A stretch of 64,000 nt of DNA from Cenococcum geophilum 1.58. Lineage: Eukaryota; Ascomycota; Dothideomycetes; Gloniales; Gloniaceae. Under the pieces are notes generated by a model. That model did not search any database. It was not told where the DNA came from and saw only the letters and a list, made by a program, of their open reading frames with translations. Numbering within the stretch: the first letter of the stretch is position 1; the number at the start of each line of letters is the position of its first letter. Made by a program: the position numbers and the translations under genes. Where the stretch lies: positions 6,022,230 to 6,086,229 of the forward strand of contig KV748177.1 in NCBI GenBank assembly GCA_001692895.1. Direction: 5' to 3'. Of the stretch, positions 16,079 through 64,000 are shown piece after piece.

Positions 16079-16083
16079 CTCTA

Positions 16084-37513: not shown

Positions 37514-38009
37514 TATGTCACTGTATGAGCAAGCAGGATCTTTCGCTCGTATGTAAATTCCTCAAGGCTGTCTATAGTTATAGATAAACCGGCGGTAGAA
37601 GTTATAAAAGCTAAGGAAGAACTAGATCCCCTTTATAGTATAAGGGGGTTTCTAGTTATAAATTACTTTAACCTTCTTAGGAATAACCTTAAATCCTTTT
37701 ATAGTAACAATAAACCTAAGATACTTTATACGTTTTACTCTAAATTTATATTTCTTAATATCTATTTATAAGCCTATATTCCATAACCTCTTTAGGACCT
37801 TTTTAATATAAACTTAATACTTAAATTTATTGTCTAAGTATATAAGAATATTGTTTAGGTAGGCTGTATAGAATTTATTAAGATAGTTAAAAAGGACGTT
37901 ATTTATATACCTTTAGTATATAATCGGCCCGTTTATTTATCTAAAAAAAAAGACTTTATATTTATAGGACCTATAATAGGCATAGAATATTATTAAGTCT
38001 TTAGCTATA

Positions 38010-38055
38010 ACGTAGTCGGCAAGCTAATAGGCTATGCAAGCCTCCAGGCCACCCC
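38010..38055 (+). repeat. Left terminal inverted repeat of the Fot1-like transposon
   Basis: Starts ACGTAGTCGGCAAGC and ends CAGGCCACCCC; pairs with 59456-59501. Confidence 0.92.
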
Positions 38056-38139
38056 ACTAAACCACTAAAGGTAAATATAGCAAATTACTCAACCACGAAC
38101 AATTGTATTTGGTGTAGCTATTTACTAGCTACTTATTTA

Positions 38140-38545
38140 TATAACGGAACCTTATAGCGAGTACCACGATAGGCTTGTTATTAGGCTAGGTGTGTAGGTA
38201 ATGCAAATTAAAGTTAATAATATAATAATAACTAGTAGAGTAGTTACCTAACAGATTAACTTTAATTGTATTCTAAGAATTGCTACAAGGAAGGAACTAT
38301 CTAGGTAGGGACTAAGGGTCCTTAAATACACAACTATACTTCTATAAAATCCTTCTTATATATAATATACATATACTCTATTTGCTTTATTATAGATTAT
38401 ATAGATTACGTTACGTAACCTTAGTTACTATTCCTTGTTATATAGCTCTATTAGTTCTATCCTAGACCGTACTTAAATTAACTAACTAGCTTTTTTTAAC
38501 TTTTCTCTAAGTAGTTATAATATTATACTTAAAGCGTCCGTAACA
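38140..38545 (-). repeat. 3' LTR of gypsy B2
   Basis: 406 bp, TATAACGGAACC to GTCCGTAACA; partner of 57348-57771. Confidence 0.88.
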
Positions 38546-41500
38546 CTATCTCCCTTTTCTTTATCTTTATCCTTAAAGATTCTTAATATCTCTAAGTTGT
38601 TTACTAGAGGTATAATATCCGTCTAATTAATTTGGTTAATATCGTTACTTATTATACTTAAAGTAATTTCTTCCTCTTTAACTGCTCGTTGTGCTCGCAC
38701 TATTGCTATAATATTATCTCTTAGTGAGATTATACCGTCTCTATATTCTTGCTGTTTAAAAGAGGAGTTAGTTTATATTACGCTAGTAAACCTATCTTTA
38801 CAATAACCGTTTTTTTGCTTAAAGTGTACTAAAGCAAATATTTATTTGTCCTATAACGTTTACTTTATCTCTAATACTAAATATACGTAACCTATTATTC
38901 TTAATAATCGTCTAGTTCCCTAATTAATTTATCTTAGGGTTTTATATTTAATCTACTACTACACAGCTAGATAATAAACTGTTTATTACTCTGGCGGAGT
39001 TATACTATTCTTATAACGCGGAATAGGAGGCTACTAATGCTTAGTAATGGGCCCTTAAGTCTTATCTTATAGCATCCGCTTAATTAATCCGTCTTAAAAA
39101 GGTTTATAAAAAGGTCCGTTTTAAGGAATAGAAGCTTATAAAATAGGGTCTATAGGAACTTAGTAATAAAATAACGGATTTTTTTCTAACTAAGAAGGAA
39201 ATAGATTTAAGTAGCTCGGCAACTGCTCTTCTTAGGTCCCCCTTAGGTGACTTATTTTTTAGCGATCCTTTTTTATTAATACTGCCTANCCTAATNTNTT
39301 NTAATACTCCTATACCTTTCCTATAGCGTTNTTTAGNTTNTNTAGTAGTTCCTAGGTAGTCTTATTATAGCCTATCTACTTTACCTTATACTATATTTCG
39401 TTATTAATGTCCTTATAGCTAACAATTTTTAAAACTTACTATTTGTCCTCTTTTTGTCCTTTATACGTGTCTATCTTATAAACTAGTAGCTTAATATTCC
39501 CGTATATTAGCTTTAGTATTATAATATACTATATAGGGTAGATCTTTATTTTAGCTAGTAGGTTTAACTTAAACGTAACTAGTAAAATTCTTTATTTAAT
39601 TTTAAAAGGTCCTAGTCTAATATAGTCTAACTTCTTGCTTAGTTATTAACTCTTAAAATTTTTGTGTAGTAGCTATACTTTATCTCCCTCCTTAAGATCT
39701 TGTCCCTTAGATCTCTTAATATTATAGTACCTTTTTATTCTCTACTATACTATTTCCACTAATTCCATAAGGTCTATATAAAGATTTATTAATGTTTTTA
39801 TTCTTTCTTTAGCTATGCTACTTATTTTTTTTGCTTACTATAGTAACAACGATATTCTTAGCTTATATCTATAATTTGCCTTAAATAGTAATATACCTAT
39901 TCCTTTTTATGGTATTATATTATATATAAACTGTATAACTAGTAATAATAATACCCAATTATTCTATACGTAATTAATATAGTGTTTTAGATATTGTTCT
40001 AGTATCTAGTTTAATCTTTCTATTTAACCGTCTATCTACGGATAATATACGGTAGAAGTTGCTGCTCTAACTCCTTATTCCGCTAAAAATACCTCCTAAA
40101 ATACTGTTATAAATCTTAGATCTCTATCTAATATAATTTTACTTAATACTCTATGTCTTATAAATACTTCTTTAATATAGATTCTAGCGATATCTTCTGC
40201 TAATATTTCTTCTATATATATTATAAAGTATCCCTACTTTATAAGCTTATCTACTATTACTAGGATTACGTTATAATCTTATTTAGTAATAGGGTTTCTT
40301 AACCTTAATAACTTAATAATAAAGTCCTATAATATAACCTCCTATAGTCTTTCTAGTATTTTAATAGGTTATAGCCCTCTATATAGCTTATGCCTTATTA
40401 GTTTGTTTGTTTAGCAATCTAGGCATTTCTTTATAACTTTTCGCGCTAAGCCCTAGATTCCGTTAATAATGTACTCTTTTTAGAGTCTTAATACTAAGCC
40501 TATAGCTCCGTTGTGTCCTTAAGTTATTCCCTTATAGAAATCTTTTATAAAGTATTCTGCTATACTTCTTAGGATATACTTTACCTCTCTGTGTTTATAT
40601 AATATTTCTTCTCCTAGATATTCTAGCTGTTCTTCTAGCTGTGCTTTAAAGATCTTCTATGCCTAAAAGCTCTCTAATAACTTATAAACTCTTTCTAGTT
40701 TGTTATCCTCTTAAGTTACTATAATTTTTAGGTAATTGTACCTAATTAATCCGTCTATATCTTTTCGTAGTAAAGCCCCTAATAGCTTTTCTTTATTTTA
40801 TAGTTTAGCTTTTTAACTTAAAGTATCTGCTTATGTGTTATCTATACCCTTAGTATACTGTAAGCATCTCTGCCTATCTAACCTATTTTTAGTTAAGTTC
40901 CTTTATTATTAGGAATCCCATTAGGTTCTTATAATCTATTTTAACTATAAATAGTTTTTCTATACCTTATAAGAATACTCTCTATTTCTTTAGTGCTATA
41001 ATTATACCTAACAACTCCTTATTAGAGATGTTATAGTTTAACTCTAGTAGTGTTATTTTCCGACTATAGTATACTACTAGGTGCTATCTATCTTAATGTT
41101 TTTATATAAAGTATGCCCTTAATATAAAGTCTAATATATTTATTTCTATAACCGTCTCTAATCTTAGTTAATAGATTTTAAGAACTGGCTCCTAGGTAAA
41201 TAATTTTTTAACTTTCTTAAATAATTCTCACTGTTTCTCTCCCTATGCCTATAGTTTTTCTTTTTTTATTAATTGCGTAAATGGTTTAATATTCTTTAAC
41301 TATTGCGCTATAAACCTTCTACAGTAATTGCAAAACCCTAGAAGCGATCTTAACTATATAACGTTCTCTAGTTCTTGCTAATTTACTATAGCCTTAATTT
41401 TTTTTAAATCTATACTAAGTTAGCCTAGTTTAATAATAAATCTAATAAAATCGGTCTTTTTAGTAAAGAACTTGTATTTTTTAATTACTACTAGTATCTG

Positions 41501-43226
41501 TTCCTTCTGTAGTCTCTTTAAAACCTATTTAACGTATTCTCCGTATTCTTCCTTAGTTATTAAGTAGATAATAATATCGTTAAGATATACTATAATAAAT
41601 TTATCTAAGTGTTCTTCTAATATATTATTAATACACTTCTAAAATATTACTAGTGCGTTTATAAGCCTAAATTATATAACTAACGGCCTATATAGTTCCT
41701 CCTCTAATCTAAAGGCTGTCTTTTATTTGTTGCCTTCTTTAATCCTAATCTAATAATATACCTATTTTAGATCTATCTTTATAAAGATTTGCGCGTTACC
41801 TATTCTGTCTTAGATTTTGCTAATTAAGGGTAAAGGATACCTATCCTTTCTGGTAATGCTGTTTAACTANCTATAGTTAATACACAGCCTTAGTTTACTA
41901 TTTTTCTTTAGTATAAATAGTCCTAGATAACCTGCTGATGATTATAATAGTCTAATATATCCCTTTTGTAGGTTTTCTTAGACAAACTCTTTTAATACTC
42001 TACCTTCTTCTTTAGTAAGCTTATAAATTAGAAAGAACCTTAAACTTATTTCTAGTTCTAATTCTATCTTATAGTTCTATACTATATACTCTAACAACTT
42101 TTTACTTTCTGGTGACTATAGTTTTTTACTATACTTATAGTATCGTTTTAGTATATAACTTAGTCCTTTTTCTATTTCTTTATAGGTTACTCCTACTTAG
42201 TACTATACTAACTTAGCTTATTATTATATCTTTGCGTTATTAAGTATCTTTAATATTAACCTAACCTGTAATCCAATTAATCCTTAGATTATATTCCTAT
42301 AATTAAGGCATTCCTAATACTGCCTTATTATTCCCTAATGGTAATATATTAAAAGACATCTCAATTTATTTTCCTTTAATGGTTAATTAAATAGGTCCTA
42401 TTTTAAGATTAATAATGCCTCCTCTATAGGCTATCAGATCTCCTAAAATTGTTACTAATAGGTAAAAGTGCTCCTTCTTTCTGTGTGGTAACCCTATTTT
42501 TTTTTTAACTGCTACTAGTAATATATGGTTTCTCGTTACTCTACTATCTATTAATGCTTCGAACTATTAATCTTACTACTTAACTTATAGATTTAGGTGT
42601 CGTCCTTAAATTCCTTTAAGGGTCTAAGGTTCTACTACTGGTTCCCTTTAGTCCTATAGGCCTCTACTTTTCCTAACTATTAGCTACTTAATCCTATTTA
42701 TATTTAGTCCACTTTTAGCCAATACTTGATTTGCTTTTTGTCTTTAATATACTATAGACATATATTCTCTAGGCATTCCCACTACTATTATCTATTTAGG
42801 TATTCTTCCGTAAGGAATCTTCCTAACTAAAGTACTAAGTCCCCTTAGCTTTATACTTCTACTAGGTGCTAACTATATATATACTTAGCGTTTTAATATT
42901 TTGCTTTATCTAGTGCCTAATATATTCTTACTGGATACTTCCAGTTTTTATCCTTAGGTGCTCTATATATATTATACGTATTATCTATATATATAATCCA
43001 TGCTAATATATAGTATACTTAGTGTTTTAGATTAACTCTTAGCTTATCTTTATCTTTAAATTTAAACCTCTCTCGTATTAATCTAAGCGTTGCGACTTTA
43101 TTTATAGGTACTAAGATTTGCCTTTTACTTCTCTAGTCCTCTAATTACTCCTCTAAATCCTTTAATATTATAATTAAGGCTCCTTTAATGTGACTTATAG
43201 CCTTTTCTATAATTAGGTGGTCTTAG

Positions 43227-43437
43227 TGTCACGGCTTAAATAAATGCCTTTAAACCGAAGCTTGAACGAATGCTGTATTACGAAGATACTAAGCTAAAGA
43301 GAAGGAAAAGGGGTCGCTAGGACCGATGTAAACAAATATATAGGGTAAGCCGCTAAGGCGCTAGCTTTAGGCGGGCTAATCATAGGTCGGCAGAATATAG
43401 CAGAATTTGGCAGGTAACGTGCGATAGCGCCGTTATA
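43227..43437 (-). repeat. 3' LTR of gypsy E
   Basis: 211 bp, TGTCACGGCTTAAATAA to GCGCCGTTATA; near copy of 54804-55014, differing by transitions. Confidence 0.92.
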
Positions 43438-46400
43438 TTACCCCCCTCTTTAAAAGAAAGCCTGCCCTTAGGCTTAGTTAGAAATAGGGTAGCACTAGGC
43501 TTATAAACGTAGGATTATAAAATATAAGATAAGGAGATAAAGGGGATATAAGTACGTCTAGACTAAGTACAAAGGGCGATTATAGGCTAAGTGGAAGCAC
43601 TAGGCTAGAAAGAGTAGCCGCTAAAAGTCTTAGCACGGATCTAACTAATTAGATAACTTTAACCGGCGGTTAAAGTTCCTAGATATCTGAAATTTTACGG
43701 TACTAGCAGAATTTAGCAGAATATAGCAGAATATAGTAGAATTTAGCAAATAGCTGTATTAGGGTTTTAGGGCGTTTTTATCCCTATATTCTTCCGGTAA
43801 CTTATTATCTTTATTATACTAGCATTTTATCTATTCGTCTAGGTACTTTAGGGGTCCCGGCGTATTAGGGTATTAGTTATAGAATTCTTTAAGCTTCTAG
43901 GGGTAGCCTATAAAGTTCTACGTAGGGTACTAGGTTAGGTTAGGATTATAGCCCTTCTATTAGACACGGTATTTTAGCGCTCCCCATACTATCTTATAGG
44001 CCAGTATTTTATTAACCTCCTATTTATTATCACCATTTACTTAAACTAGTAGGGGAGGCTTGTTCTTTTGTCCAGGTAATAAGTTATTTATAGCTTTCCG
44101 TAACTTATTTAGTAAGAAGATAGGGTAAACCCTAATTAAATCTAGGAGCTTTATCTTATATAAGTTGCCTATCTTCTTAAGAACCTTATACGGTCCTACC
44201 ATCTAGTAGTCCAGCTTACGGCTAGGTCGTTTAGTCTTCTAATTCCTTATTATAACCTATACTATATCGCCAGGGGTAAAATCAGGCTCTTGACGGTGTT
44301 TGTTCGCCTACTATTCCATTAACCTCTAAGCTTTTTCTAGGTTCTTATAGGCTACCATCTAGGCTTCCTTTAATCGTTTAGCGTACTATTAGGCCTTAGT
44401 ATAGAATAGCTTCTCTTATATAGTCTGGGGTTCTTTTAGCCTTTTCCAGTTAAAGCTTATGCAGGGTAGGTATCTCATTTCTAGCTAAATTAGGGTAAAC
44501 CCTATAGAGTTATAGGGTAGGGTTGCTTGCGCGTAGTCTATTAAGGGTAGTAGTTTAAACCAGTTGTCCTAGAAATAGTTAACGAAGGGCCTAAGCCTCT
44601 GGTTTAGGTACTAATTTATAATCTCTGTCTAACCGTCTGTTTAGGGGTAATAAGCCGTAAAAAGCTTTAGCTTAATACCTAGGATCTAGGTAAACTTATT
44701 CTAAAAGGCCGATATAAACTATAGCCTATAATTAGACACAATAGTATTTAGTAGTCCGTAGATTTAGTAGACGTAATAGATATATAGCTAGGCTGCCTCT
44801 TTAGCATCAATGTTTTTATAGCAGGGAATTAAGAATAGGCGTTTACTAAAGCGGTCGACTATAACTATAACTATATTATATCCGTTATGGTCCCTAAGTA
44901 GTTTATAAAAGTCTATAGAGATATACTACTAAGGGCGCTTTAGTATTAGGAGTGGCTTAAGTAGTCATAGGGTCTTATCCCGTGGGATTATAGCTCTTTA
45001 GCAGTCTTCGCAGTTCTATATATATTAATTAATATCCACAACCATTCTCGGCCAGTAGTAGCGGTAGTTAATAATTTTACGGGTCTTATTCTTGCTAGGG
45101 TATGCTATAAAGACTTAGCAATAAGCTTCGCGGATTAGTTTAGTCCGTAGATTATTAATATTAGGGACTATAAGCCGCTCCTAGTATAGGAGTAATCCTT
45201 CCTCCGTTTTAAAATTAGGGTTTCCTTTTACAGCTTATTCGCAGAGGGCCCTTAAAGCATTAGCCGTGCGGTTTACAGTTAGGAGGCGGTTAATTAGCCC
45301 TATTAGCTTATCTAAGGACTCCCCTATTAGTGCTAGCTCGTTTTACTAGAAGTCTAGCTCCTTAAGGATCCGTGGGTCAAGCTATTCTAGATAGAGGAGG
45401 GCGCGCGTTTAATATTAGGTCTTTAGCTTATCCTAGGGTCTTACGTCTTATTCTCTTTAGGTTAGGGCATTAGCCTTAAAGTTTTACTTACTAGAACGAT
45501 ATATAATCATAAAGAAGAATTAAAAGAGTATTTTAGCCTACTAGGCTTATTATTTAATAAGCTGCTTTATAGTTATAAAGTACTCTAGGGCTTTGTAATT
45601 TATATATATCTTAATCCAGGAGTTTATACCTTTAAGCTCTACACGCTATTAGAAGAGTAATTAAATAATAGCTAGTATTTCTTTATTATATACTTTATAG
45701 TTATACTTAGCCGGGTTTATTGTCTTTAAGAAGAAAGCTATAGGGTATTATTTACCGTCTAGATATAACTATAATAGGATTCCCGCTACGACCCTATTAA
45801 AGGCGTCCGTTTCTAGCATTAATTTAAGGTCTAAGTTATAGTAATAAAGGATTAGGGAAGAGATAAGCCAATCCTTTATCTCTTTAAAGTCTTTTATATA
45901 GCTATTATTAAAAATAAAAGGCGTGTCCTTCCTAGTTAGTTATATAAAAGGTTTTGCTATAATTCTATAGTTATAGATAAACTATTAGTAGAAGTTATAA
46001 AAGCTAAGGAAGGATTAGATTCCTTTTACTATATAAGGGGGCTTCTAGTTATAGATTACCTTTACCTTCTTAGGGTTAACCTTAATTCCTTCTATAGTTA
46101 TAATAAACCTAAGGTATTTTATACGTTTTACCCTAAACTCGCATTTCTTGATATTAACTTATAAGCCCGCGTTTTGTAGTCTCTTTAGGACCTTCTTAAT
46201 ATAAACTTAATACTTAAGTTTATCGTCTAAGTATATAAGGATGTCGTCTAGGTATACCGTGTAGAATTTATTAAGGTAATTAAAAAGAACGTTATTTATA
46301 TACCTTTAGTACGTAGCCAGTCTATTTATTAGTCTAAAAGGAAGAACTTTATATTTATAGGAACTATAACAGGTACGGAACGTTGTTAAATCTTTAGATA

Positions 46401-46650
46401 TAGGGTTTATCCTAATTTAGTAGAAAGCTTAGCGGATATTAAGTTTAGTAAAGATCTTTACCTAGCTTAGACGTGTAAGGGTCTTATTAATTAAAGGAAT
46501 AGAATACTGGTCCTTTTAAGTAATAGCGTTTAGCTTTTAATAGTTAATATAAAAATAAAGGCCTCTATTAGGCTTTTTTATAAATAGGATAGGGGAAGTA
46601 AAAGGGGCTTAACTTGGCTTAATAAACCCTTTATCTAAGTTATTAATTAA

Positions 46651-46676
46651 TAATAATAATAATAATAATAATAATT
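46651..46676. repeat. (AAT)n trinucleotide tract, LINE 3' tail
   Basis: About nine AAT units. On the coding (minus) strand it is a TTA-type tail at the 3' end of the LINE, directly next to the target duplication. Confidence 0.9.
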
Positions 46677-49600
46677 CATTGCTTAACGTCCGATTCGGAT
46701 CCCTACTAGGCCTACGCGGACTACTCCTTATTTACATGTAGGGAGAAAACTCTATTTAAGAAAAATAAGAAAACCCCGTGATCTATCTCCCCGCCTTTTG
46801 GGACTCGCCTACTTAGCGCCTACGAGTCGCCTATGGTGCTCTACTACCTTACTATTTAACCTCCTTAGGAACCACTACTGCCGTAACAAGCCTACGGACG
46901 CGCTAGTATCACAAACTTTTACTCTACTACTGTAGAGTTACTAGGGGGCACCTACTACTCGCCCCCTTGCCTTCTATTACCATTTCCCTTGCAACCCGGA
47001 ACTAATTTAGCACATTTTAACTAATAAGCCACTGGGTGACCGCCTTAAGGCCTTTTTATGTTAAGAGCAGTGTATTATAGTTCTCTGTGCCAACTACTAA
47101 GAGCATTATTTCTTAATTGGTGCGTAGGGGGCATAGCAGTATTACGTGTTTTGGTGTCTGTCTTGGCTAGCCACATTCACATCTCGGGCTACCTACTAGG
47201 ACACCCACCCAGTAAAGCCAATCTTTTAGTCCTATTATTCCTGTTCTTAAAAGTATTGCTATTATGTTTTCTACCTTTATTAGGCCTTTTCGGAGCCCTT
47301 AGGTATTTACCCCCCATGGCGTTAACTATACTATGGCTTGGGTTCGTCTTACCTGAGTCAGCCTCTGTACCTTTGACTCCCATTCGCCTCTCCAGCGTTG
47401 GTCCAACCAGTATTACATTACGGTAGATGGTTTCCCGGCGTTCTTACGTGTTCTACTTTAGCTCCTTTCTCTATCTTGCTGTTATCTTTACTAACCTCTT
47501 ACACGTCTCCCTTCCTCCTCTATATGGGCCTAGGCCCTAAAGCGGCACCATTCTTCTTCTGCTTTCTTTACCTGTTTCTCTAATATCTCTTCCCTACTTT
47601 GGGGTTATTAGTTTATTCTCCTACGGGGCACCCTAGGGTCCCTCTATAGTTTACTTAGGCGTGTCTTAATATACTTTATAACATTAGAGTTGCGTTTATT
47701 TTACGTTCTTTATATTACAGCGGCTTTAATATGTAACTATAGGGGGGGAATATTGGATTCCTTCTCAAGCAGTGCTATAGCCGTTCGCTTGTACCCGCCT
47801 ATAATACTCTAAAGGCAGGCTGTTTAGACCTTTTGAAGTAGTTTAAGGAGTGATTTTAGGGGGCCCTTCTTAGTTTCTCCAATGGCCTAGATACTAGATC
47901 TATATATCATGGTTAGCCGGACAACTGCTATATATAGTAGGCGTGACCTCTAGAAGCATGGACCCCATATAGAATTAACAATCCTGGATAAAGCGATAAA
48001 CTATACTTGGCCTTTACGGGCCGCTTACGCCGCATATACGCTCCACCGGAGCTTACTATCTACCTATACTTCTAATACCCTTAGGCCCTGAACTAGTTAA
48101 CCCCCAAAGCCTTAGATGCGAATTATATACTAGAGATCTGCAGATTAGTTACGTTTTCTTATAAAATAGATTAGCTAGTATTTCTCTAGTAAGAATTAGA
48201 CTCCATAACGTTTTGCCTACTCTATATAAGTGTTATAGGCTTTCTCTAGTGTTCTACAGTTCTCTGCGGCTATTAGCCCGTATATAATTAGGTTTATATC
48301 ATTAACAAAGCCTATCCCCTAGGTCGCCCCTTCCTTAAAGGAGTCAAGCAGGTTGCTTACAAAGAAAAGGAAGAGTATAGGCGAGAGGGGTAATCCTTAT
48401 AGTATTCCTATTGTAACTACAATAGGGGGGCTCTGGTATCCGCTAAAAACCAATAATGTTTCTTTCTAGCCTATAAACCCTTAGACAAATTATATAATCT
48501 ATTCTAGGAAGCCCTTTACCCTAAGGATATACAGGAGACGCTCGTAGGGTACATTGTCGTAGGCACTACTAATATCTAGGCTAAGCATTAATACTACAAA
48601 GTCCTTTCGCATCGCCCATGCAGATTTAATAGTGGCAGCGAGTAGCGTAAGTACTAATAGTATTAAGCGGTTCTTTCTTGCCCCTATTTAGCTTTATAGT
48701 AGTAGGGCGTGTTCCTCTACCGTGTCTGCTATGCGTTTTACTATTACCCTTTCTAAGATCTTGCTAAGGGTGTTTTCTAAGGCAATAGGGCGGTAGCTTC
48801 CTGGGATTAAGTAATCTGCTTTGCCTTCTTTTCATAGGATAACCGTTGTTATAGATCTTCCGAGTCGCAGGTAGTAGCCTATAGTAAAGCATACTCTGGC
48901 TACATCTACAAGCTAAGGTACTATAAGTGGCCCATAGGTTTTTAGGGCCTTATTTGGAATCCCATCTGGTCCTAATACTATATTATTTAAAAGGCGGCTA
49001 ATAGTTCTAGCCATTTCCTCTATTATTATGTCGCTGTTAACCCGCAGGCAAGTCACTGGTGTTTCGCCCGTAATATCACTAAGGTCTACTAGAGCCAGTT
49101 AGGGGAAGAACCTTTCTATAAGGATCTTTACCTTCTTATCATTGTCGTTTATAGCCTATAATTCTCCTACTCTTCGTAGGGGTAGTAGGTGTGGGTCTTC
49201 TACTAGGCGCCCTGCCTTTTTCTTTACCCATTTCGCTATATCCCAAAGGCCCTTATTATAGGGGAGGCTCGGGTTAAAAGTATACTCATTTATAAACCGT
49301 CTCCAGTTATTCCTTACTTCTTTTTTTAGGGTATTCTTTAGCTAGTTTCTTGTGTCTTTATATCGTCTCTCATCTTTAGGGTCGTAGCTGCTTATATATT
49401 TCCTTCTTGCTCGTCGTTAGCTAGCAACTAGAACTGCGCATTATATAGACTATACGTGTCGCGCGTAGGGGCCCGGTTTTAAGATCGGGCAGTACTCTTC
49501 CAGCCTATTTTTAATTGCTGCCTAGATCCTTTCTAGTCTTCGGTCGATTTCCTTGGGGGTAGTTAATAGGCCTCGCTCGTTTAGTATTAGGTGGATTTCT

Positions 49601-52229
49601 TCTAGGTCTTAGAGTTGTTATTTAACTACATTAAGGAAACTGTTTATCTTAAGCTTCCTTATTACATATCTTTTTCTATTTAGTTGCGCTTTAGTATCTA
49701 GGTCTAGCTATATCTAGATAGGGATATAGTCTAGGGTAAGTGCCCATTCTTCTTTAGGGTTGCACCTTTCGAGTCTCTAGTATAGGCCTTCGTCTATAAA
49801 TATGAGGTCAATTATACTTCTGGCGGTGCCTTATTACCATATAATTGCTCCTAGGGGGGTGGCTAGCTTAAGGCCCCAGATATCTATAGCTCTTAGTAGG
49901 CACTCTAACTGTTAGTCTGCAGCAACATGGATACCCCCCCACCACAGGTAGTAGAGGTTCATATCTCCTAATAGGATAGACTTTATACCTTCGGTTTCTA
50001 GTAAGCTTATTACCAATATAATATTCTCTATTTATAGGACCCCTTTAACCCTAGGGTTATACACATTAATAATTTATACCGGTCCCCTATATGTTTGGAT
50101 TGTTATAACTGTAATATCTAGGTTAACTACCTACCATAACTATAAGGACAGGCTGATAGCCTTACTAATCATAAAGCACACACATATAGCTGCTTTTGGT
50201 TCGTATAGAAGCTAGAATCCTTAGGGGCAGTATATTAATTATGTAAAGGTATTGTAATACGGCTCTTGTATAGCAAGGATATAGTATTTCTCTAGGTCTA
50301 GACTGTCTAGTAGGGGCCTTACAAGGCGGTAGTTTATATTACCGCAGTTATACTATATAATAGATAGGTAGCGGACCCCCGGCGAGGGTCCTTCAACTCT
50401 CCTTTATTCCTCACTTCTTCTGTTTCCACTTTCTCTAGAATATTCGGAGCTTCTATCTCTTATATCTATACCCTAGTTACTACTCATTTTATATAGAGCT
50501 TTCCATTCCCGTATCTTGTGTTCCTATTAGCGCTTCTATATCTAAATCTGTTATTATTACCGGTTCTTCCCCTATTCTTACTAGTCGGCTATATACCCTT
50601 TATAGGTCGGCTATAAATATTATATTTACCGCATTAAGTCTAATTCTTAATTGTCCTAGTCTTAAGCCTACTATTGCTGTCCATAGGGGTCTTCCTACGG
50701 GGCGTCCTCTCCCTTATGTCCCCTATGACCCTTATATCCCTAATCGGTCTAGTAATATCGCGCGGCGTCGCTTCTGGCCCGTTAAGGCTTAGGATAGCTA
50801 GCCTAGCCCTCTAGTATTAAAGGTAGGAAACGCTAAGAAAGCACCTACGTCCCCCTAGCTTATCGCCTATTGTTTCTATTTGTATAACCTAGCGTGCAGT
50901 TATTCCCGCAGCTATTAAGCCCTTGCCTTCCGTCTCCTATATTTAATACAGTCTTCTCTCTCCCACGCCTTATGTGTGCTTCGGTGGCAGTTCGCGCATT
51001 TTATTTAGTCTTAATTTAAGCAATATCTCATATCGTGGGGGCCTACACAGTGGCCGTAGCACACCTGTGCTGCGCATATAGATTAGATATATCCCCATTA
51101 TATATAGCAATAGCATCATTCTAGGCGTAGTCTGTGGTTATAGAGCCTTGTGTTATATATAAGGCCATTTATAATTATTCCTTTTTAGATAAAGAGTTTT
51201 TGCATTCCTGGTGTATATATACTGACGATAAGGGAGCCATACGTTTATCCGGCGTCTCCCTAGCAAGTCTCCGGCGACCCTCATATCCTCTCGTTGTTCT
51301 TATTATATACTTAGTTTACATTTTCCTATCAAAGCCATTGGATTTAGGTAATTTCAAGTCCTAGTATAAGGCGTTCCATTTATCTTACTATCTCCTATAT
51401 AATTACTATATTATCCGCCTAGCGTCCCTTTTCTACCCTAAGGCTTATAGGAACTGCTAGGACTTTAACTGGGTAATCCTCACAGAGTACTTTTATACCA
51501 ATACGTTCTCCTAGCCTATCCCCTGCCCTTACGGCTCGTTCCTTTACCTATTAGTCCTTTAGGGTAACTCTAATATCTCCGCTCTTAAGGTGTCAGACTA
51601 CAACAGCGTCGTAGACCTCTTTGCGTATCTCTATAAGGACTTCTATTTCTAATTGTCCCCTAAGCCCCTCTGCTTATTCTATATTTAGTCGTATTATAAT
51701 TATATACCCAGTTGTTAACTTAAGAGGGGTAGGTTCCCTATACTGTAAAAGCGCAGCTACGGCGGCCCAGGTGCGGTTCGCCGGTAAGGGGGGGTTATGC
51801 TTATTTTCGATTTTACTTAGCCGTTGGAGGATTTAATCAAGGGTTTACTGGAGGGGCACCTAAGGTTCGCTAGACTAGCGGAGCCATTCTACTAGCTGTA
51901 TTAGTTCGTTATAGCTAACAGTTACTCCCCTACAATTCTAGATACTAGACGCGTCCAATAGGCTTTATATTTTGTCAGATGCCTTCTTAATAGAGGTATT
52001 TCCGCTTTGTGGTGTGGTATTCGCCCGTCTTTATTGTGGAGGGCCATTGCTAGGCGTAGTTCTAGCGGTCGCGCGCGAGTGCGAGCCACCGTCGTTCGAC
52101 GTGTGCCTCCCCTGCGATGCATGCATCTCAGGGGGATTCTCTGGGTGTTTTTTAGGGTTCTTTTGGTTGGTTTTGGTCTTTTTAGGCCGGGTGCAGCAAG
52201 AGCTCCAGTTCCGTTAATCTTAGGTCTCT
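46651..52229 (-). mobile_element. Tad1-like LINE, near full length, inserted in gypsy E
   Basis: Flanked by a perfect 15-bp target duplication TAAGTTATTAATTAA (46636-46650 and 52230-52244). Coded on the minus strand. An ORF1 start near 52122 is followed, near 51060-50940, by paired zinc-knuckle remnants (CYGHC then CANCHRSTHKAWERE). The APE endonuclease shows ILLGDMNLYYLWWGG (about 49980-49936). The RT shows FVNDINLIIYG near 48300 (family FVDD). The ORF2 C-terminus has a readable zinc-binding block SPRCECG...HVILLCP (about 47195-47130). The 3' end is a TTA trinucleotide tail. Frames are broken by several stops and shifts, so it is dead, but long stretches at 46680-47600 and 51900-52220 have normal composition, so it is probably the last insertion of the nest. 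Confidence 0.9.
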
Positions 52230-54803: not shown

Positions 54804-55014
54804 TGTCACGGCTTAAATAAATGCCTCTAAACCGAAGCTTGAACGAATACTATATTATAAAGATACTAAGCTAAAGAGAAGGAAAAGGGGTCGCTAGGAC
54901 TAATGTAAACAAATATATAGGGTGAGCCGCCAAGGCGCTAGCTTTAGGCGGGCCAATCGCAGGTTGGCAGAATATAGCAGAATTTGGCAGGTAACGTGCG
55001 ATAGCGCCGTTACA
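54804..55014 (-). repeat. 5' LTR of gypsy E
   Basis: 211 bp, TGTCACGGCTTAAATAA to GCGCCGTTACA, followed by the target duplication cttag. Confidence 0.92.
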
Positions 55015-57347
55015 CTTAGACAACTTTTTTATCTAACTATATATAGAAATCTTCCTACTTGTCGTTATGTCGTTATCTATACTACTTTTAGTATAACCCT
55101 TTAAGTGTATACGGCTTATCCGTAAGGAAGTATCTTTTTATTACTATATTATAACAGCCTTTTATATATTGTTCTTTAAACCTAGTTAAAATCCCTAAAT
55201 CCTCTTCTTATTCTAGTTTGGTAAGCTACTTAACTCTTAGTATACCTATCCTATATTTATTAGTAATCCTTTATATAGGTGCTTTGTCCCTTATACGGCC
55301 TAGTGTACTAAATCTCTTATCTAGTTTCTAATCTTACTATAAGGTAATTCTTACTCTGAATTCCTTTATGGTTTCTTTCTTTTTGCGTCTTATAAGTAGA
55401 TCCTTAAAGTCTTCTTACTTTTTAATCTCGTTAGTGGTCCTTATTTATACGTTAAAGTCTTAGTTCTATAGGATTCTTAGTCCTAAGCTGGCTTCTGTCT
55501 TAAGCTTAGCTCCTACCTTAGTCTAACTAGGCTTAGGTATTCTTATCTTATCTTAAGAGTTTTAAATCTCACTTATCTTATCTTAAGAATCTTATACCTA
55601 TAGGAAACTCTATCCCAAGCTTATTTATATATCTTTAAACTAAGCTATTGCTCTACTCTATTAGTTGCTGTCCGTTATAGGTCCTTAAGCGTGCCTTATC
55701 CTATTTTAGGAATCTTAGTTATCTCTTATCTCGTCTTAAGAATTTTAAGCCTTTGGCCTTTTACCTTTATCGAGTAATAAATTAGCACTAGTAGTTGTCT
55801 GCTTGCTTAGTCTCTATAAAACACTCTTCCTTTCGTTTTATAAAGCGATAGATGCCGTATCTAATAGTGTTATAATGCCCGTTACTAAACCTTACTTTAT
55901 AGCGGTCTCAGTCTCTGCTTTTAATGTGACTTCTTTAAGGTTTACACGCTCCTAGTAAGCTGCCTTTATTGCCTTGTCGTCTGTAAATGTTTTGCCTATA
56001 TTAAACTCGTCGTCTTTAATATCCGATCTGCGTAATAGTTTATTAGTTCCCCTATATTCTAAGGATTTTGGCTCCTATAGCCAATGGCTTACACTATACT
56101 TAGCGTCTTTATAAATTTGGTAGGCGTTATTATAACAAAATACGAAACTTCTAATTAAACACTCTTTTGTTCCTTGTAGTATACTATTATCCCTTTATAT
56201 ATATATGTCTTCTACTATTAGTCTGGTTCCCTTTATTATATAATAACTCTAACTATCTTTATAATCCCTTATAAAATAACCTTATTTCCTGCAATTTATA
56301 TAAGCTCTATCTTTAAACTACTAACTTTACTATAGAGTCCGCCTAAACGTCTTCTGCTGTTAAGATCCCTAGTTTAGCCTCTACTTCTTAGTTCTATAAT
56401 TACTAGATCTTTAACCTCTAGGTTTTTATAGTTTCTTACTTCTTATGGGCCTCTTTAGTACCACTTAGGTCTATTAGCTCTACGCTATACTATAATTTCT
56501 AATTTAGCTTTAGTTATTGCGTGCTCTACGCCTTATATAACTATAGAACTCTATCCTAACCTCTCTTAGCCTGTTCCCTTTAGTAGATCCAATTGTTAAT
56601 CTTAATTACTTAATTTATTAACTCCCGTAGGGTATCCGTATCATTTATTAGAATAATTACGTCCTAGACTTTAGCCTTAAGTCCTTATTTATACTGTGCT
56701 ATAAGCGCCTTGTTATTCTACTTAACTTATATTACTAACGTCTGGAACTGCGTTATATACTTAATTGCTAAGGTTTATTATATAATATCTTAGAGTTTTC
56801 TTTCCGCCGTAGTTACTACCTCTAGATCTCTAAATATTTATATAAATCGCTCCGTAAATCCTTCCTAGCTTAAGAATATAAATTATACCTCCTAATTAGT
56901 GGTTATTATTTTATTTGCCTGTATTTCTATAAGGTAAGGCTTAAACTACTTAAGTGCTCTTCTTAATAGGAATAGTCCCGTATAGGCTATTCGATCTATA
57001 GGTATTAGTAGCTTTACTCCTTCTTATATAACTTTAAAGTGCATTTATATAAGGAATCCTTTAAGCTTTAATCTTTCTCCTAAGTACCTCTTAATTAATA
57101 GTAACTTAATCTTTACTGCTCTAATCCTATTAACCCTTTCTTCTAGCGCCGTATTATTAGTTATTAACTAGTTAACTATTTCTTATAACTGTCCGACCGT
57201 TATAGGTTGCTATAAGTTAGTATCTGCTATACTAGTGTTACCTTCTAACCTTAAAGTAGTTGCCGCCGTCAATGGCGTTATAGTAGCTGCTTTTAGTGGC
57301 ATATTGTTTAACTTTCTGTATTTAATACCGTAACTAGGTAGTAATTA

Positions 57348-57771
57348 TATAACAGAACCTTATAGTAAGTACTATAATAGGCTCGTTATTAGACTAGGTA
57401 TATAGGTGATATAAATTAAAGTTAACAACGTAATAATAACTGGTGGAGTGGTTGCCTAATAAATTAACTCTAATTGTATTCTAAGAATTACTATAAGGAA
57501 GGAACTATCTAGGTAAGAACTAAGGGTCCTTAAATACACAACCGTACTACTATAAAATCCTTCTTGTATATAATGTACGTGTACTTTATTTACTCTATTA
57601 CGGATTATATAGATCTTATAAATTATATAGATCACGTTATATGACCTTAGTTACCATTCCTTATTATATAGCTCTATCGGTTCCATCTTAGACCGTACTT
57701 AAATTAACCAACTAGCTTTTTCCAACTCTTCTCTAAGTAGTCGTAACATTGTACTTAAAGCGTCCGTAATA
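57348..57771 (-). repeat. 5' LTR of gypsy B2
   Basis: 424 bp, TATAACAGAACC to GTCCGTAATA, followed by atttg. Confidence 0.88.
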
Positions 57772-57776
57772 ATTTG

Positions 57777-59400
57777 ACGTCTAGGGCACGTACGTGCATT
57801 ATGTTCTATTAATTTGCACATGCTATACTTACGTACTGCCCGTTACGGTCGCTCAGCCGCTGCCTCTACTGCCCCCTCTACTACCGTTTTCTGGGCAGCT
57901 TGTGCACGAGATAGGCCTTCTGCTCCTAATAGAATACCCCCCTTAGCTATATACGTGCGACGCTGTGCTCTCTTTCTTTTCTGGCGCTGGTTTTCTATAT
58001 ATAGCTTCTTATTTTCACTTATAAGCAGGATAGTACTTAACATTGCCATTTCGCACCCCTTAATAAGCTAGCTAAGGGCTTGTTCTATTAGACTTAGTAG
58101 GCTATACATACGCCGCTTAAGAATAGCGCCTTAGCAAGGCCGTCTGCTGTTATAGCTTAGTAATATTATAGGGTGTTTTAGGTGCCTGGGATGCACTTAA
58201 CTACGGACGGCGTTGGGGTAATAGCGTCTAATATTCGGTGTGTAGCTATGCTAGTACGCGATTAGGGCTATATGGAACTAGGCTAGTAGCTATAAATCCT
58301 GTCAGTATATTATTCTAATAAATGGCTATATGCCTAGCCTACCTATATAGTGGCAGAAATTCGTGTTTATTAATATAGTTAACACTATAACCTATAAGCT
58401 GTTTAACGAGGCGTCCGTATAATTACTTAAGGACTAAGAAACAGCCTATATCTAGTGGCTGCAGTAGATATAACGAATACGCTAGTATATAAAGGACGAC
58501 TATCTAATAATCCAGATAGTACTGATTAAATTTAGGCGATATATAGCTGTTGTGGCTATCTAGTACTAGCAGCCGATGCGTGCTAACCGTATAATCCTTT
58601 ATATGCTTATTAAAGACCTCTATTAACTAGGTTAGGCCAATCTTATTTATTATTTAGCTATTATCGCTAATACCAACTAACCAGTTATATGGGATAATAT
58701 CGTCCTTATACTAAGTAGCTTAGTATATTACTGCCTTGAAAATAACTAGTAGTAGAATTATAACCCCTAGGGCATTAATATATTTAATAATTATAACCTA
58801 TTCTTAATTTCCTGGCTGTACTATTCTAGGCCGGCCAGCCCTATTAGTTCCAGTAATAACTTTTATAGTTATAATAACACCTATCTAATAGCCAGTTTTA
58901 TTAAAATTCTAAATATCCTCGTTAAGAATCCTATATTAAATTTTTATATCTTAAACGCGTTTAAACTAGGCCTAAATAAGTATAGGATCCTTATATTTAG
59001 CATCCTAGTAGTTATACTTGCGATTCTATTTAGATTATAGGTCATTATAGCGCTTAATAAAGTTATGTACCCATCGCTCGCCAACTAGTTACCATTTGGC
59101 GTACTAGGTAGCTAAAAGGCTAGCCATCTACTATATTATAACAACCCTAGGTAGTATACCGCGTTAATCTATTAATAGAATCCACTGCTTAAGGCTCTCT
59201 TCTTATACTGGTGTAAGACGGCGATTTAGGGCAATAGAACCGCGTCTTGGTTTAATGCCTTTGTTGCGTTACTAGGCTGTAGTTTAGGGCACATTGTATG
59301 TCTTTACAGCAGATTGGAAACTTAAGAATTAGCCTTAATTATGAGCATTAAGAGCTAGAATAAGTCTACCCTCTTAAAAAAGGGGTTTTTCTTATCGTGG
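57777..59400 (-). pseudogene. Fot1/pogo-type DDE transposase, RIP-inactivated
   Basis: Read on the minus strand, the conserved blocks follow the family order in mostly one frame. A DNA-binding part has WVHNFIKRYNDLQSKWNRKY near 59075-59010. The first catalytic region reads NFNKTG near 58885-58905, where the family has NFDETG, so the first catalytic Asp is now Asn. The second region is RLLVLDSHNSY near 58535-58570 with its Asp kept. A later block is LLQPLDIGCF. The basic C-terminal tail has RQKRKRAQRR (about 57990-57961). In-frame TAA stops replace Gln codons. The typical length is about 540 residues; the remnant is nearly full length but cannot produce an active enzyme. Confidence 0.85.
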
Positions 59401-59455
59401 TGTAGTCATTAAAGTAATAGTTAAGTAACGCGTTGCGTCTTTTACGATTTTGATA

Positions 59456-59501
59456 GGGGTGGCCTGGAGGCTTGTATAGCCTATTAGCTTGCCAACTACG
59501 T
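59456..59501 (-). repeat. Right terminal inverted repeat of the Fot1-like transposon
   Basis: Reverse complement of 38010-38055 except for two transitions; followed by TA. Confidence 0.92.
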
Positions 59502-61121
59502 TAAGGTTTATATAAATTTAATAAAAAGCTTAGCGGATATTAAGCTTTATAAAGATTTTTGCCCAACTTAGGCATATAAAGGTCTTATTAATTAATAGAA
59601 TAAAGTACTAGTCCTTTTAAGCAATAGCGTTTAGCTTTTAATAGTTAATATAAAAACAAAGGCCGCTATTAAGTTTTTTTATATATAAAATAGGAGAAGT
59701 AAAAGGGGCTTAGCGTAGCTCGATAAACCCTTTATTAAAATTATTAATTAGGTATTACTTTATTACTTTAAGTTTATTTATAGTTTACTAGTAAAGGGGG
59801 CGATATACTAGGAAGTTATTTGCCTTTAATTGGATCTTATAGTTATAGGTTTAGTAAAGGGGTAGCTAGTTAGACGCCGTCTTTAAGCGTACGTCCTTAT
59901 ATCCTAAGTTGATAGTAAAAAAAAGGCGCTTAACTCGCTTCTTATTAGTTTCTTTAGATAGTCCTTTTTCTCTTTTATTAAGAATTTAGTTAATTTTATA
60001 TAAGCTAGTTATAAAGACTTTATTATCTTACTAGTATATATTAAAGTAGAACTCTATAGCACTAATTATAGTAATATCTACTATAGGGGGGTCGCGTAGT
60101 TTAGGGGGTTATATAACTTTAGGTTCTAGAGTATTAATTATATTATTCCTTTTTTTAGCTCCTATTATATCTTCCTAAGGCCATCTCTTATATTCTATTA
60201 GTAGGTTCTCTTTTATATTAGTTAAATTTCTATAATTTAAAAGTCTTCTATATTACTATCCGTCCTACTTCTATAAGTAGAGTCCTCTTTAACTATGGCG
60301 CCTTAAAAGAGTATTTTTATTAGTATATAGGAGTTTATTCTAGCCTTTTAATAGGCGTCTTCTTAGGTAAAGGCTATATCGCGGTCCCTAACATTCTGCT
60401 AGTAGGTAGGGTTAGCCTTTATAGCTAGTATCTAGTAATTAGTTCGGATTTCTCCGGTAAAGAAGAGTAACTTTAATCTATCCTCTAGCTAGATAAACCG
60501 TCTTTATTATATATTTAACTAAATATTAAAGTAAAATGTTTACTTTTAGCGAAGGATTATATTATAGGACCCTAGGTCTAAAATATAAAAAGAAATACTA
60601 TATTAATATTGTCTATTAAGAGAGATATATAACCCTAAAATATAGGTAACTAGCTTACCAGCTTAACTACTATAGTCTTTTATTAGAATAGGTTTCTCTA
60701 GTTAGATAACTTTTATATTTAGAAACTTAGTAATATTAATTATATTTGTAGTATTTTTAAAGGTAAAGCTATTTACTCTAGTATTACTAAGGGTAGTAGC
60801 ATTAACTCTATATCTATTTTACGATACTATATATAAGGTTATAAAGTATTTACTACCTATTAGCTAACTTAGGTTAATCTTTTTAAAATTAATAGGGTAC
60901 TCTAGAAAGGAGTTTTCCCCTAAAGTTCTTTTTTTTAACTTATTAAACGCTTCTTCTTTCTCTATTTCCTTAATATTACCTATTTATTTTTAGCTCTAGG
61001 TAAGATAAGGTAAAGTAACTATCCTTTCTATAGCTGTAGTATATAACCGTAGTAGGGTTAATTAGAGTATTACGGCAAATATTAGTTAAAGGCGTAGTAT
61101 ATAATAGGTTAGGCAAAGTTT

Positions 61122-61459
61122 TATAACGGGACTAACCCAGTTATAGTAGGAATGTCTCGGTGAAACACTCGACAGACAAATCCCGACGCTTTGACCAAAT
61201 TCTGCCGAATTCTGCTAGCTTGATCGACTTCTGCCAAGTTCTGCTAGATCAATTCGAATTCTACCAAAGTCCGTCGAAGACCGCGTGCGCACGCATCGAC
61301 CACTAAGACCCCTGACTATTTAATTATAAGATTCTCTCGTTATATCTTTCTCTTCTTTACGCAACGTCTTGTACTCTGCAAGAGCTATATACCCTTAGAT
61401 TTGGATAGAATTTATATTATTCCTTCAAATCTCCTTTAAAGCCTCTTCACGCCCTCACA
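61122..61459. repeat. Solo LTR of a distinct family inside gypsy F
   Basis: 338 bp, from TATAACGGGAC to GCCCTCACA, flanked by agttt (61117-61121) and agctt (61460-61464), one transition apart. Element E lacks it at the same place. The left half holds repeated TTCTGCC-A units (61199-61260). Its composition is closer to normal than F. Confidence 0.7.
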
Positions 61460-62667
61460 AGCTTATATATTTATAGTTATAACTACTTTTAGCGCAAGAG
61501 TAGTTATAGCTTATCTTCCTACTCTAACTTCTATAGGTATGGCTAATAAGTTTTAATTATTATAGGCTTATTTTTATTAATTAGAGCGGATATTAATTCG
61601 CTTTAGTTCTAAATCTAATAATAAGTAATAAGCCGTAAGTCCTTTATAGGTTAGTAGGTTGTTTAAGGTTATAGTAATCTTCTCTTATAGCCTAATTATT
61701 ATGTTATTATATAGGTATAATTAGTAATTTTTAAGGGGAACCTAGCCTCCTCCTATAAGATATAGGAATTAAATCTAAAATTTAGTAAAGGGTTAGTTCG
61801 GTTTTATTATTAGGCGATTATAGTTATACTAGGTATTTTATACTTTATTTAAGTTAATATAAATAATAGCTAAATATTATAGTATCTTACTAATAGATAT
61901 AAACTAGGTAGAAAAGTTGTCCTTAAACTTGGCCTAAAGGTAATACTAGGCACTTTTAGTAGTTTAACTAAAAAGGTAGAGCATTTTGGCTGCTTTAGAG
62001 AGGAAGTGGTTATTATTAACGCGGAGTTTTCTTTTTATTCCAATCCTCTAATTCTTAAAGGTAGGGTCTATTCTATTAGATAGCGGTTAGGGGTTAGAGA
62101 GCTTAATAGATTTTAATTACTTTATTATTATATCTATACTCTCTAATATATTATATTTAATAGGGTAAATAGGTTAGCTAGGGCTTTAAAGGGGGGAAGC
62201 TAAGCTATTTTATAGGGCTATAAGGCTTTTAGAATCTCTTATAGGGTCTTTTATATATTTTTTACTTTAAAATAATTAGCTTTCTAGCTAGCCGTAAGGG
62301 CATAAATCTACTTATATACGTCTATAGCGCTATTATTGTCTTTAATTAATAATCCTAACTAGATCTGAAGTTTCCTTTAGGTAATAGCAATTCTCTTAAA
62401 TAAGCTTACTTTAGGTGCTATTATTAGCCTCTAGGGTTTATTAAAATTATATAATCTAGTTTTAAGTCTAGGTTTCTTTTAGGTATATAGGTTAAGTACA
62501 GTCAAGCCTATGAAGTAAAATATTTTAAAAAGCCTTTCTAGGCAGTATAGGGAGAGTAACTTTTATTATCTAAATATAATGTATTAACGCATCGTTACGG
62601 ATAAAGGTCCTTTTAGAGTAGGATGTTTTTAAGGCTTTCTAGGCAGTATAGGGAGAAATTAGTATAA

Positions 62668-62938
62668 TATAACGGGCTTATATAAATGCCTCTAAGATAA
62701 AGCTTATAGATTACTACTATATAAAAATACTAAGCTAAAGAAAAGAAAAAGAAAAGAAAGGTCCTTAGGGGTTAACGCAAATATAAAGGGATCGCTAAGG
62801 CGCTAGTAGTAAGCGAGCTAATAGCAATTTTCCATCCTGGGGGTAGAAAATCCTAATTAGTTAGTAGAAGTTAGGGTTAGTAGAATATAACAGATATATA
62901 GTTGAATTTAGTAAGTAACGCGCCCTAGTACCGTCACA
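62668..62938 (-). repeat. 5' LTR of gypsy F
   Basis: 271 bp, TATAACGGGC to GTACCGTCACA; same length and type as the G LTR at 19867-20137. Confidence 0.85.
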
Positions 62939-63260
62939 GTACTAGGTATCTATTAAGGTAAAAGTATTTACTTTAGAGTTAGCTAAAGTAGAGGTTAAAA
63001 CTTAATATTTATTACAGAATAAATTATAAGGGATAGTGTAGCTCCTTTTACTAACTAGCTAACCTAGATTAATATATAATATATTAATCCCTTTTAACCC
63101 TAGAGAGAAGTCTTTCTTTAAGGTGTCTCTTTTTTTTTTAACTTTATACTATCCTCCTAGATTAATAAAACCTTATCTATTTTTATCTTTATCTAATAGT
63201 CCTTAGTAAAGTAGTTCTTTTAGCTATATAAAAAGCAAGCTCCTTAATTACTAAAGGTCT
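62939..63260 (-). mobile_element. Gypsy fragment right of F, gag/protease-like
   Basis: Weakly similar to 53260-53470 of element E (a CTATTTACTCTAGTATTA-like stretch and the segment before the knuckle). It is strongly RIP-mutated with no open frame. It is probably the element into which F inserted, ending in a poly-T run at 63259-63276. Confidence 0.45.
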
Positions 63261-63282
63261 TTTTTTTTTTTTTTTTATATCC

Positions 63283-63391
63283 GATTGTATTATACTACGT
63301 ACAATACTGCGCATGCAGCCTCTAGGCTATGGCGCTATAGTTCTATATACATGAATCCTTTCTAGGCAGCTTAACATGTACTAGTAGCTAA
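63283..63391 (-). repeat. Dispersed A-tailed short repeat, copy 2
   Basis: Matches 35063-35170. On the minus strand a run of about 18 A follows its 3' end, a better-preserved tail than in copy 1. Confidence 0.65.
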
Positions 63392-64000
63392 GTGGACACT
63401 CTGGCCCGTTAAAATGCTAGGGGAGCTCTAGCTAAATTGGTGTTTTTGTTCTGGTATTTTGCTTACTATGGTCCAGTTTACACCAAGAAGATCGCACTAA
63501 GGAAATCCTGGCTCTTTTATCTATTTCTGCCGTATTCTGCCGTTTCTAGAGTAGAAAAAGCGCTCTAAAAGATAGATTTAGTAATATTTTTGCATATAAA
63601 AACAAAAGGTTCTTAATAGTTTGCCAGCTTGGAGACAACTACCAGTTATTCCTATACGACTTTTTTCGGTAATGTACCCTATTACTTCTCCTTGCTAAAG
63701 AAATGGGTAGGGAATTAGTAATTAGTAGGTACTCTCCCCAAAAGTAACCTACTAATCCTAGATTTACGTTCTAGAAAACGGGTATTTTATAAGGGCGAAC
63801 CTCGTTACATAAACCCACTCCCATAGGAAAATTTTCGCGAGGTTGTCTTGTATAGGGTATAAACACCAATTCGCCTATACACCTTATATTTTACGTGCTA
63901 AAGGAACACGGGCCGGCCCCCTTCCCCCTTCCCATAGCCACCCTAGCGACGCATCTGCCGCTCGTCTGCGGTCCGTCTGCGGTGCGACCGTGCGCCTTGG
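63392..64000. other. Unassigned DNA at the right edge
   Basis: Mixed composition, becoming GC-rich after 63900 with short CGTCTGCGGT-like repeats (63961-63985). No gene, LTR or known element recognised. Confidence 0.35.

What the first reader, a model, noticed from the sequence alone, without database searches (positions are those of the whole stretch)
37571..62938. Five-level nest of transposons, with target duplications at the inner junctions
Reading inward: gypsy F (truncated) contains a Fot1-like transposon (TA, 46-bp inverted repeats), which contains gypsy B2 (attta/atttg), which contains gypsy E (cttag/cttag), which contains a LINE (15-bp duplication). Each outer sequence resumes at the right homologous point after the inner one is removed, so insertion order is fixed. 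The nest mixes cut-and-paste, LTR and non-LTR classes and starts 58 bp after a live P450 gene, giving a relative time scale for element activity and RIP.
Basis: seen in the sequence. Interest (0 to 1): 0.8.

Follow-up and report, generated by a model that had tools for sequence, protein, structure and literature searches.

The report
Nested transposons in a fungal chromosome
A stack of transposons inserted one inside another, scarred by mutations of the kind a fungal genome defence makes, lies beside a cytochrome P450 gene; it is real and its insertion order can be read, but nests of this kind are already known in fungi.

Summary
The nest is real and its junctions are exact. I mapped the two flanks of each insertion separately onto other genomic copies. 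They abut with an overlap equal to the claimed target duplication: TA for Fot1 in F (6 of 6 loci holding both flanks), 5 bp for B2 in Fot1 (26 of 27), 5 bp for E in B2 (4 of 4, plus B1 in the window), 15 bp for the LINE in E (8 of 8). This makes an assembly chimera very unlikely. That is six layers and eight elements. Insertion order is fixed from F inward, but LTR divergence cannot date it: B2's LTRs differ by 55 transitions and 1 transversion, E's by 14 and 0. Transversion distance to sibling copies falls inward from F to LINE (0.0240, 0.0110, 0.0065, 0.0017, 0.0001 per site), but G breaks the trend (0.0132), so this reports family age rather than insertion age. Nested, RIP-mutated clusters are known from other fungi. 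Ordinary; low interest.

The parts
62939..63259 (-). G: interior piece of a gypsy-like element into which F most likely inserted; cut on the left by F's LTR end and on the right by H
   Evidence: 39 other copies listed, 86-90% (40 of 1024 candidates scored); 5 of 5 other fetched G copies align with copy L086 on both sides of the segment; 65.5% identical to F 60751-60941. Strand by similarity to F.
37571..38007 (-). F (gypsy), left remnant, RT region; truncated at 37571
   Evidence: RVT_1 1e-7 on the piece 37571-38008; repeat homology starts exactly at 37571
59504..62938 (-). F, right part to the end of its LTR (...GTCACA)
   Evidence: Continues F: 6 of 6 loci holding both flanks abut across a single TA; F LTR homology in L076
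61122..61459 (.). Solo LTR (338 bp) of another family inside F, TSD AGTTT/AGCTT at 61117-61121 and 61460-61464
   Evidence: 39 other copies listed (40 of 963 candidates scored), ends compared with 19 fetched copies; site empty in L017, the only one of 109 loci that holds both flanks, and in the C38 copy (gap)
38010..38055 (.). Fot1-like left TIR (46 bp), TA at 38008-38009
59456..59501 (.). Fot1-like right TIR (46 bp), TA at 59502-59503
57777..59501 (-). Fot1-like transposase region, decayed
   Evidence: HTH_Tnp_Tc5 2.9e-7; DDE_1 0.0013, below its cut-off
38140..38545 (-). B2 left LTR (TATAACGG...GTAACA), TSD ATTTA 38135-38139
   Evidence: LTR start read from sibling copies: 6 of 7 begin at the same base, L008 two bases later; LTR pair alignment
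57348..57771 (-). B2 right LTR (...GTAATA), TSD ATTTG 57772-57776
39900..42019 (-). B2 pol pieces: RT in 41450-42019, possible integrase zinc finger near 40.4-40.5 kb
   Evidence: RVT_1 6.7e-16; zf-H2C2 0.0069, below cut-off
43227..43437 (-). E left LTR (211 bp), TSD CTTAG 43222-43226
54804..55014 (-). E right LTR (211 bp), TSD CTTAG 55015-55019
44600..46638 (-). E pol pieces in the order RT, RNase H, integrase (read on the minus strand)
   Evidence: RVT_1 9.2e-20, Integrase_H2C2 6.7e-12, rve 0.011 below cut-off; RT_RNaseH_2 2.5e-6, just below cut-off
46651..52229 (-). LINE, (TAA)n tail at the left end, TSD TAAGTTATTAATTAA at 46636-46650 and 52230-52244
   Evidence: RVT_1 1.1e-9, Exo_endo_phos_2 4.4e-6, just below cut-off; empty site in 8 of 8 E copies
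63260..64000 (-). H: poly-T-ended (poly-A on the minus strand) repeat that cuts G and runs off the contig end
   Evidence: Copies at 99% (C37) and 97% (C132); 0 transitions and 1 transversion in 719 and 718 aligned sites. Class not determined.

Best explanation
A genuine nest formed by successive insertions: G, then F into G, then a Fot1-like transposon into F at a TA, then gypsy B2 into Fot1, then gypsy E into B2, then a LINE into E by target-primed reverse transcription (the enzymology is inferred from element class). A solo LTR in F and the poly-A-ended repeat H in G are side insertions whose place in the order is known only relative to their hosts. RIP-type mutation affected all six layers. 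A later deletion or rearrangement, of unknown mechanism, removed the left arms of F and G and left F's broken end 57 bp from the P450 stop. Shown: boundaries, duplications, empty sites and order from F inward; RIP-type bias. Inferred: F into G, H into G, the deletion, the enzymology.
For: Flank overlap on sibling copies equals the target duplication at all four inner junctions (B1). Domain hits place E and B2 as gypsy-like, Fot1 as pogo/Tc5-like and the LINE as endonuclease plus RT. C-to-T differences fall at CpA far more often than at CpC or CpT: LINE 39% against 1.7% and 2.2%; G was not context-tested but has the highest RIP index, 1.86. Sibling G copies continue on both sides of the window's G segment.
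Against: F's own target duplication cannot be checked, because nothing of F or G remains left of 37571; F into G rests on F's LTR ending flush inside a G segment. H's second end lies off the contig. Reads were not available. Eight N calls lie at 39289-39342 and one at 41870, inside B2.
Confidence: 0.85

Rival explanations
1. Assembly chimera: unrelated repeat copies joined by the assembler near the contig end.
For: The nest lies at the end of contig C2, which stops in a repeat with 97-99% identical copies elsewhere; Ns occur in B2.
Against: Four insertions carry flush ends and target duplications of fitting length, each matched by an empty site in independent copies. A chimera would not produce these.
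Confidence: 0.02
2. The nest is real, but F and G were brought together by rearrangement, so that F is the outermost true layer and G is merely adjacent.
For: The left side of F is lost, so no duplication can be tested.
Against: F's LTR ends at GTCACA and G begins at the next base, at a point inside G as judged by 5 of 5 other fetched G copies that continue leftwards.
Confidence: 0.12
3. The layers were laid down in one burst rather than in separate waves, and differences between layers reflect family histories only. (Not exclusive of the main explanation, which needs an order but no long gaps.)
For: Sibling distance measures family age, and G (outermost) is not more diverged than F. B2 and E LTR pairs show 1 and 0 transversions, so both may be young.
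Against: Sibling distance falls at every step from F to LINE.
Confidence: 0.35

Closest known systems
Nested transposon clusters of Mycosphaerella graminicola (Zymoseptoria tritici), PMC4522978
   Same: Passages seen: 78 putative nested clusters of 7.5-63 kb, the majority with an LTR element as base, LTR target duplications of 4-5 bp; CpA-to-TpA bias; 60 genes within 2 kb of clusters, cytochromes among them; the caution that RIP may inflate LTR insertion ages.
   Different: Different genome; here a Fot1-like DNA transposon is one of the middle layers and six layers are stacked. I did not tabulate nesting depth in that paper, so I cannot say that six is unusual.
Nested retrotransposons of maize (recalled; mentioned in a PMC4522978 passage)
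   Same: Elements inside older elements, order read from target duplications.
   Different: In plants LTR divergence is used as a clock (recalled); here RIP-type mutation makes it unusable.
Fot1/pogo-like DNA transposons (features recalled)
   Same: TA target, TIRs, HTH_Tnp_Tc5 match.
   Different: Decayed copy with 1855 bp of own sequence, split by B2.

Membership tests
Nested transposon cluster | Outer element resumes at the homologous point after the insert | tested here: met
   Flank overlaps in sibling copies at four junctions; for F in G only one side exists
Fot1/pogo-like (Tc1/mariner superfamily) | TA target duplication and TIRs | tested here: met
   TA/TA, 46-bp TIR; 6 of 6 empty sites with one TA
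Fot1/pogo-like (Tc1/mariner superfamily) | Tc5-type DNA-binding domain | tested here: met
   HTH_Tnp_Tc5 2.9e-7, 30.8 bits against cut-off 22.2
Fot1/pogo-like (Tc1/mariner superfamily) | DDE_1 catalytic domain | tested here: inconclusive
   DDE_1 0.0013, 18.7 bits against cut-off 22; the copy is decayed
Ty3/gypsy (E) | LTR pair, 5-bp TSD, order RT-RNase H-integrase | tested here: met
   LTRs and TSD; RVT_1 and Integrase_H2C2 above cut-off, RT_RNaseH_2 just below
Ty3/gypsy (B2) | LTR pair and 5-bp TSD | tested here: met
Ty3/gypsy (B2) | RT before integrase | tested here: inconclusive
   RVT_1 6.7e-16, but only zf-H2C2 0.0069, below cut-off, for the integrase
Ty3/gypsy (F) | LTR pair and order of domains | tested here: inconclusive
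   Only one LTR and part of pol remain; assigned by 76-84% identity to E over four flank pieces and RVT_1 1e-7
Ty3/gypsy (G) | LTR pair, TSD and pol domains | not tested
   321 bp only; 65.5% identity to F over 199 bases
LINE (non-LTR retrotransposon) | RT with endonuclease, no LTR, variable-length TSD, simple 3' tail | tested here: met
   RVT_1 1.1e-9; Exo_endo_phos_2 4.4e-6 (27.0 bits against cut-off 27.4); 15-bp TSD; (TAA)n tail
Solo LTR at 61122-61459 | Single LTR with 5-bp TSD and TG...CA ends shared by other copies | tested here: met
   one TSD base differs (AGTTT/AGCTT); the first two bases read TA in the window; that full elements with this LTR exist was not tested
Repeat-induced point mutation | Transition excess with CpA preference | tested here: met
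   (LINE, E, B2, Fot1, F); LTR pairs 55:1 and 14:0
Repeat-induced point mutation | RIP demonstrated in the organism | not tested
   organism not identified

The most novel reading that the evidence does not exclude
The nest is a readable stratigraphy in which each successive family was hit by RIP almost as soon as it amplified, yet RIP never stopped the next family. The LINE copies differ from the window copy by 7-9% transitions but by 1 transversion in 7187 aligned sites (6 copies). The H family, with the window copy and two others nearly identical and without a transition over about 719 sites, would be the wave now in progress. Transversions between siblings would then be a usable RIP-proof clock.
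Probability: 0.3. Interest if true: 0.4.

Novelty: new member of a known kind. Interest (0 to 1): 0.2.

Why it matters
As one locus it matters little: it documents how a large fungal genome accumulates insertions within dead repeats. Its use is methodological.

Tried and rejected
LTR divergence as a clock: rejected, differences almost all transitions. One search gave 54:1 for B2 with the LTR end set a few bases too far; one search gives 55:1 (its end is still one base too far; the LTR ends at 38545). RIP index as a clock: does not follow depth. Transversion distance to siblings: falls from F to LINE, but G does not fit (pooled 25 of 1887 sites in 6 copies, nearest copy 1 of 316). With a single G copy it had seemed to fit; five more copies removed that. 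It therefore reports family age. The copies compared came from the scored BLAST hits, which favours near relatives; only the best aligned piece per copy was counted, over 0.3-2.4 kb.

Assembly chimera: rejected on duplications and empty sites. Rfam and tRNA scans of the window: nothing (the tRNA scan used the bacterial code). Pfam on 10 pieces: 6 gave nothing, 4 gave a match (E RNase H, a weak LINE RT, the P450, and a chance-level ORF6N). Pfam on 9 pieces: 7 matched, 2 did not; ACCA_BT (0.18) and HTH_psq (0.21) were set aside as chance. Pfam on 9 LINE pieces: 1 matched (49500-50499), 8 did not. All transposon pieces that I tested were from the minus strand.

Species: not identified. The best P450 relative (98%) is a JGI record without a named organism. 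The genome size of 177.2 Mb resembles the 177.57-Mb maximum in the abstract of PMC4392786 (search listing). That this might be Cenococcum geophilum is my recollection and untested; PMC5023957 (one passage) gave no support either way. Literature: six searches and passages of PMC4522978, PMC10787394, PMC13041039 and PMC5023957. One search found no held paper with all of 'nested insertion', 'RIP', 'LTR retrotransposon', 'transversion' and 'fungus'; that does not show such work is unpublished.

Full report
The window is the right-hand end of contig C2 (6,022,230-6,086,229) of a 177.2-Mb, 162-contig genome; position 64000 is the contig end. Composition is gene-like at 35.0-37.5 kb and low in GC, rich in TpA and poor in CpA from there on.

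Boundaries. Repeat detection found the pairs that make up the nest. I then read each end. The Fot1-like element spans 38010-59501 with 46-bp TIRs that differ at 2 positions and a TA on each side. B2 spans 38140-57771: sibling copies show that its LTR begins at TATAACGG. Its duplications are ATTTA and ATTTG; the four empty copies printed read ATTTA, so the difference may be RIP on several copies or a single change in the window. E spans 43227-55014 with 211-bp LTRs and CTTAG on both sides. The LINE spans 46651-52229 with a 15-bp duplication and a (TAA)n tail at its left end, so it lies on the minus strand. The transposase, pol and LINE domain matches are on the minus strand too; I tested only minus-strand pieces of the transposons.

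Empty sites. I took the left and right flank of each insertion as separate queries and asked where they land in other copies. They abut with an overlap equal to the target duplication: Fot1 in F, 2 bp in 6 of the 6 loci holding both flanks (109 scanned, two of them pieces of the window); B2 in Fot1, 5 bp in 26 of 27 (29 examined; the exception gives 9 bp where the alignment stops 11 bp short); E in B2, 5 bp in 4 of 4 (10 fetched, 6 without either flank); LINE in E, 15 bp in 8 of 8. The window's own B1 copy, 8042-16080, holds a single CTTAG at 13125-13129 where B2 holds E, and E itself gives the empty site for Fot1 in F. The whole-genome tables agree: in contigs C38, C20, C65 and C4 the part of F left of Fot1 directly adjoins the part right of it.

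More layers than reported. F carries a 338-bp insertion at 61122-61459 that begins TATAACGGGAC (TGTAACGGGAC in most of the 19 fetched copies) and ends CACA, with AGTTT and AGCTT on its sides. It is a repeat with 39 other listed copies, and the site is empty in L017, the one locus of 109 that holds both flanks, and in the C38 copy of F. It is a solo LTR by structure. F's LTR ends at 62938, and the next 321 bases are an interior piece of another repeat, G, with 39 other copies listed at 86-90%. Five of five other fetched G copies align with copy L086 on both sides of that piece, and G is 65.5% identical to F's own 60751-60941. F therefore most likely inserted into G. F's duplication cannot be tested, because nothing of F or G remains left of 37571. 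At 63260 G is cut by a poly-T run and a repeat H that continues to the contig end. A 119-bp piece of the same repeat lies before the P450 gene at 35051-35169.

RIP. C-to-T differences between the window's copies and their siblings fall mainly at CpA, then CpG. For the LINE the rates per available site are CpA 0.39, CpG 0.137, CpC 0.017 and CpT 0.022; E, B2, Fot1 and F also rank CpA first and CpG second. The 338-bp solo LTR shows only a weak CpA preference (0.184 against 0.051-0.100), which would fit a repeat too short for efficient RIP (recalled from work on Neurospora).

Time. B2's LTRs differ by 55 transitions and 1 transversion over 406 aligned sites, E's by 14 and 0 over 211, so the number reports RIP-type mutation. 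This agrees with the caution in PMC4522978 that RIP may inflate LTR ages (passages). I used transversions against sibling copies instead: F 219 of 9129 sites in 9 copies, Fot1 111 of 10068 in 6 near-subfamily copies (six copies of a farther subfamily, left out of this series, gave 0.0347 per site), B2 110 of 16948 in 7, E 12 of 6998 in 5, LINE 1 of 7187 in 6. The values fall at every step inward. G does not fit: 25 of 1887 in 6 copies, less than F. Sibling distance bounds insertion age only from above, so this is no contradiction, but it shows that the series is about family age. The solo LTR gave 98 of 6270 in 19 copies. H is nearly identical to copies on C37 and C132 (no transitions, 1 transversion in 719 and 718 sites) but 0.029 and 0.033 transversions per site from two others.

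The P450. The 3' piece, 36791-37510, matches PF00067 at 2.1e-45 and is 98% identical to a JGI protein without a named organism. Fifty-seven bases separate its stop from F. Since no F copy listed extends left of 37571, and F copies elsewhere and the related E continue there (E 43227-45963), the junction is a break in F and not an element end; the continuation is read from E, not from F copies.

Verdict. The order is secure from F inward and the time scale is not. Nested clusters with RIP-like mutation and nearby genes are documented in M. graminicola (PMC4522978, passages), and nested insertions in Pseudocercospora (PMC13041039, passages).

Noticed in passing
63260-64000; 35051-35169: Repeat H has two copies elsewhere that match it without a single transition over about 719 sites, unlike the nest's layers; a piece of it also lies upstream of the P450 gene. 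It may be recently active and not yet RIP-mutated, and the contig ends in it.
   Followed up: partly
61122-61459: Solo LTR in F with little RIP signature (composite index 0.16), consistent with short repeats escaping RIP.
   Followed up: partly
8042-16080: A second copy of the B family (B1) in the same window, not opened by E; it served as an empty-site control.
   Followed up: partly
39289-39342; 41870; 15730-15808: Scattered single N calls in otherwise continuous repeats: 8 and 1 in B2, 10 in the right LTR of B1, suggesting ambiguous consensus there.
   Followed up: no
52222-52229: Eight bases between the end of the LINE's homology to the C31 copy and the target duplication; the C31 copy has other bases there (L074). 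Possible untemplated bases or variable 5' ends.
   Followed up: no
37571: F is cut in its RT region directly beside the P450 3' end; the event that removed the left arms of F and G is unexplained.
   Followed up: partly
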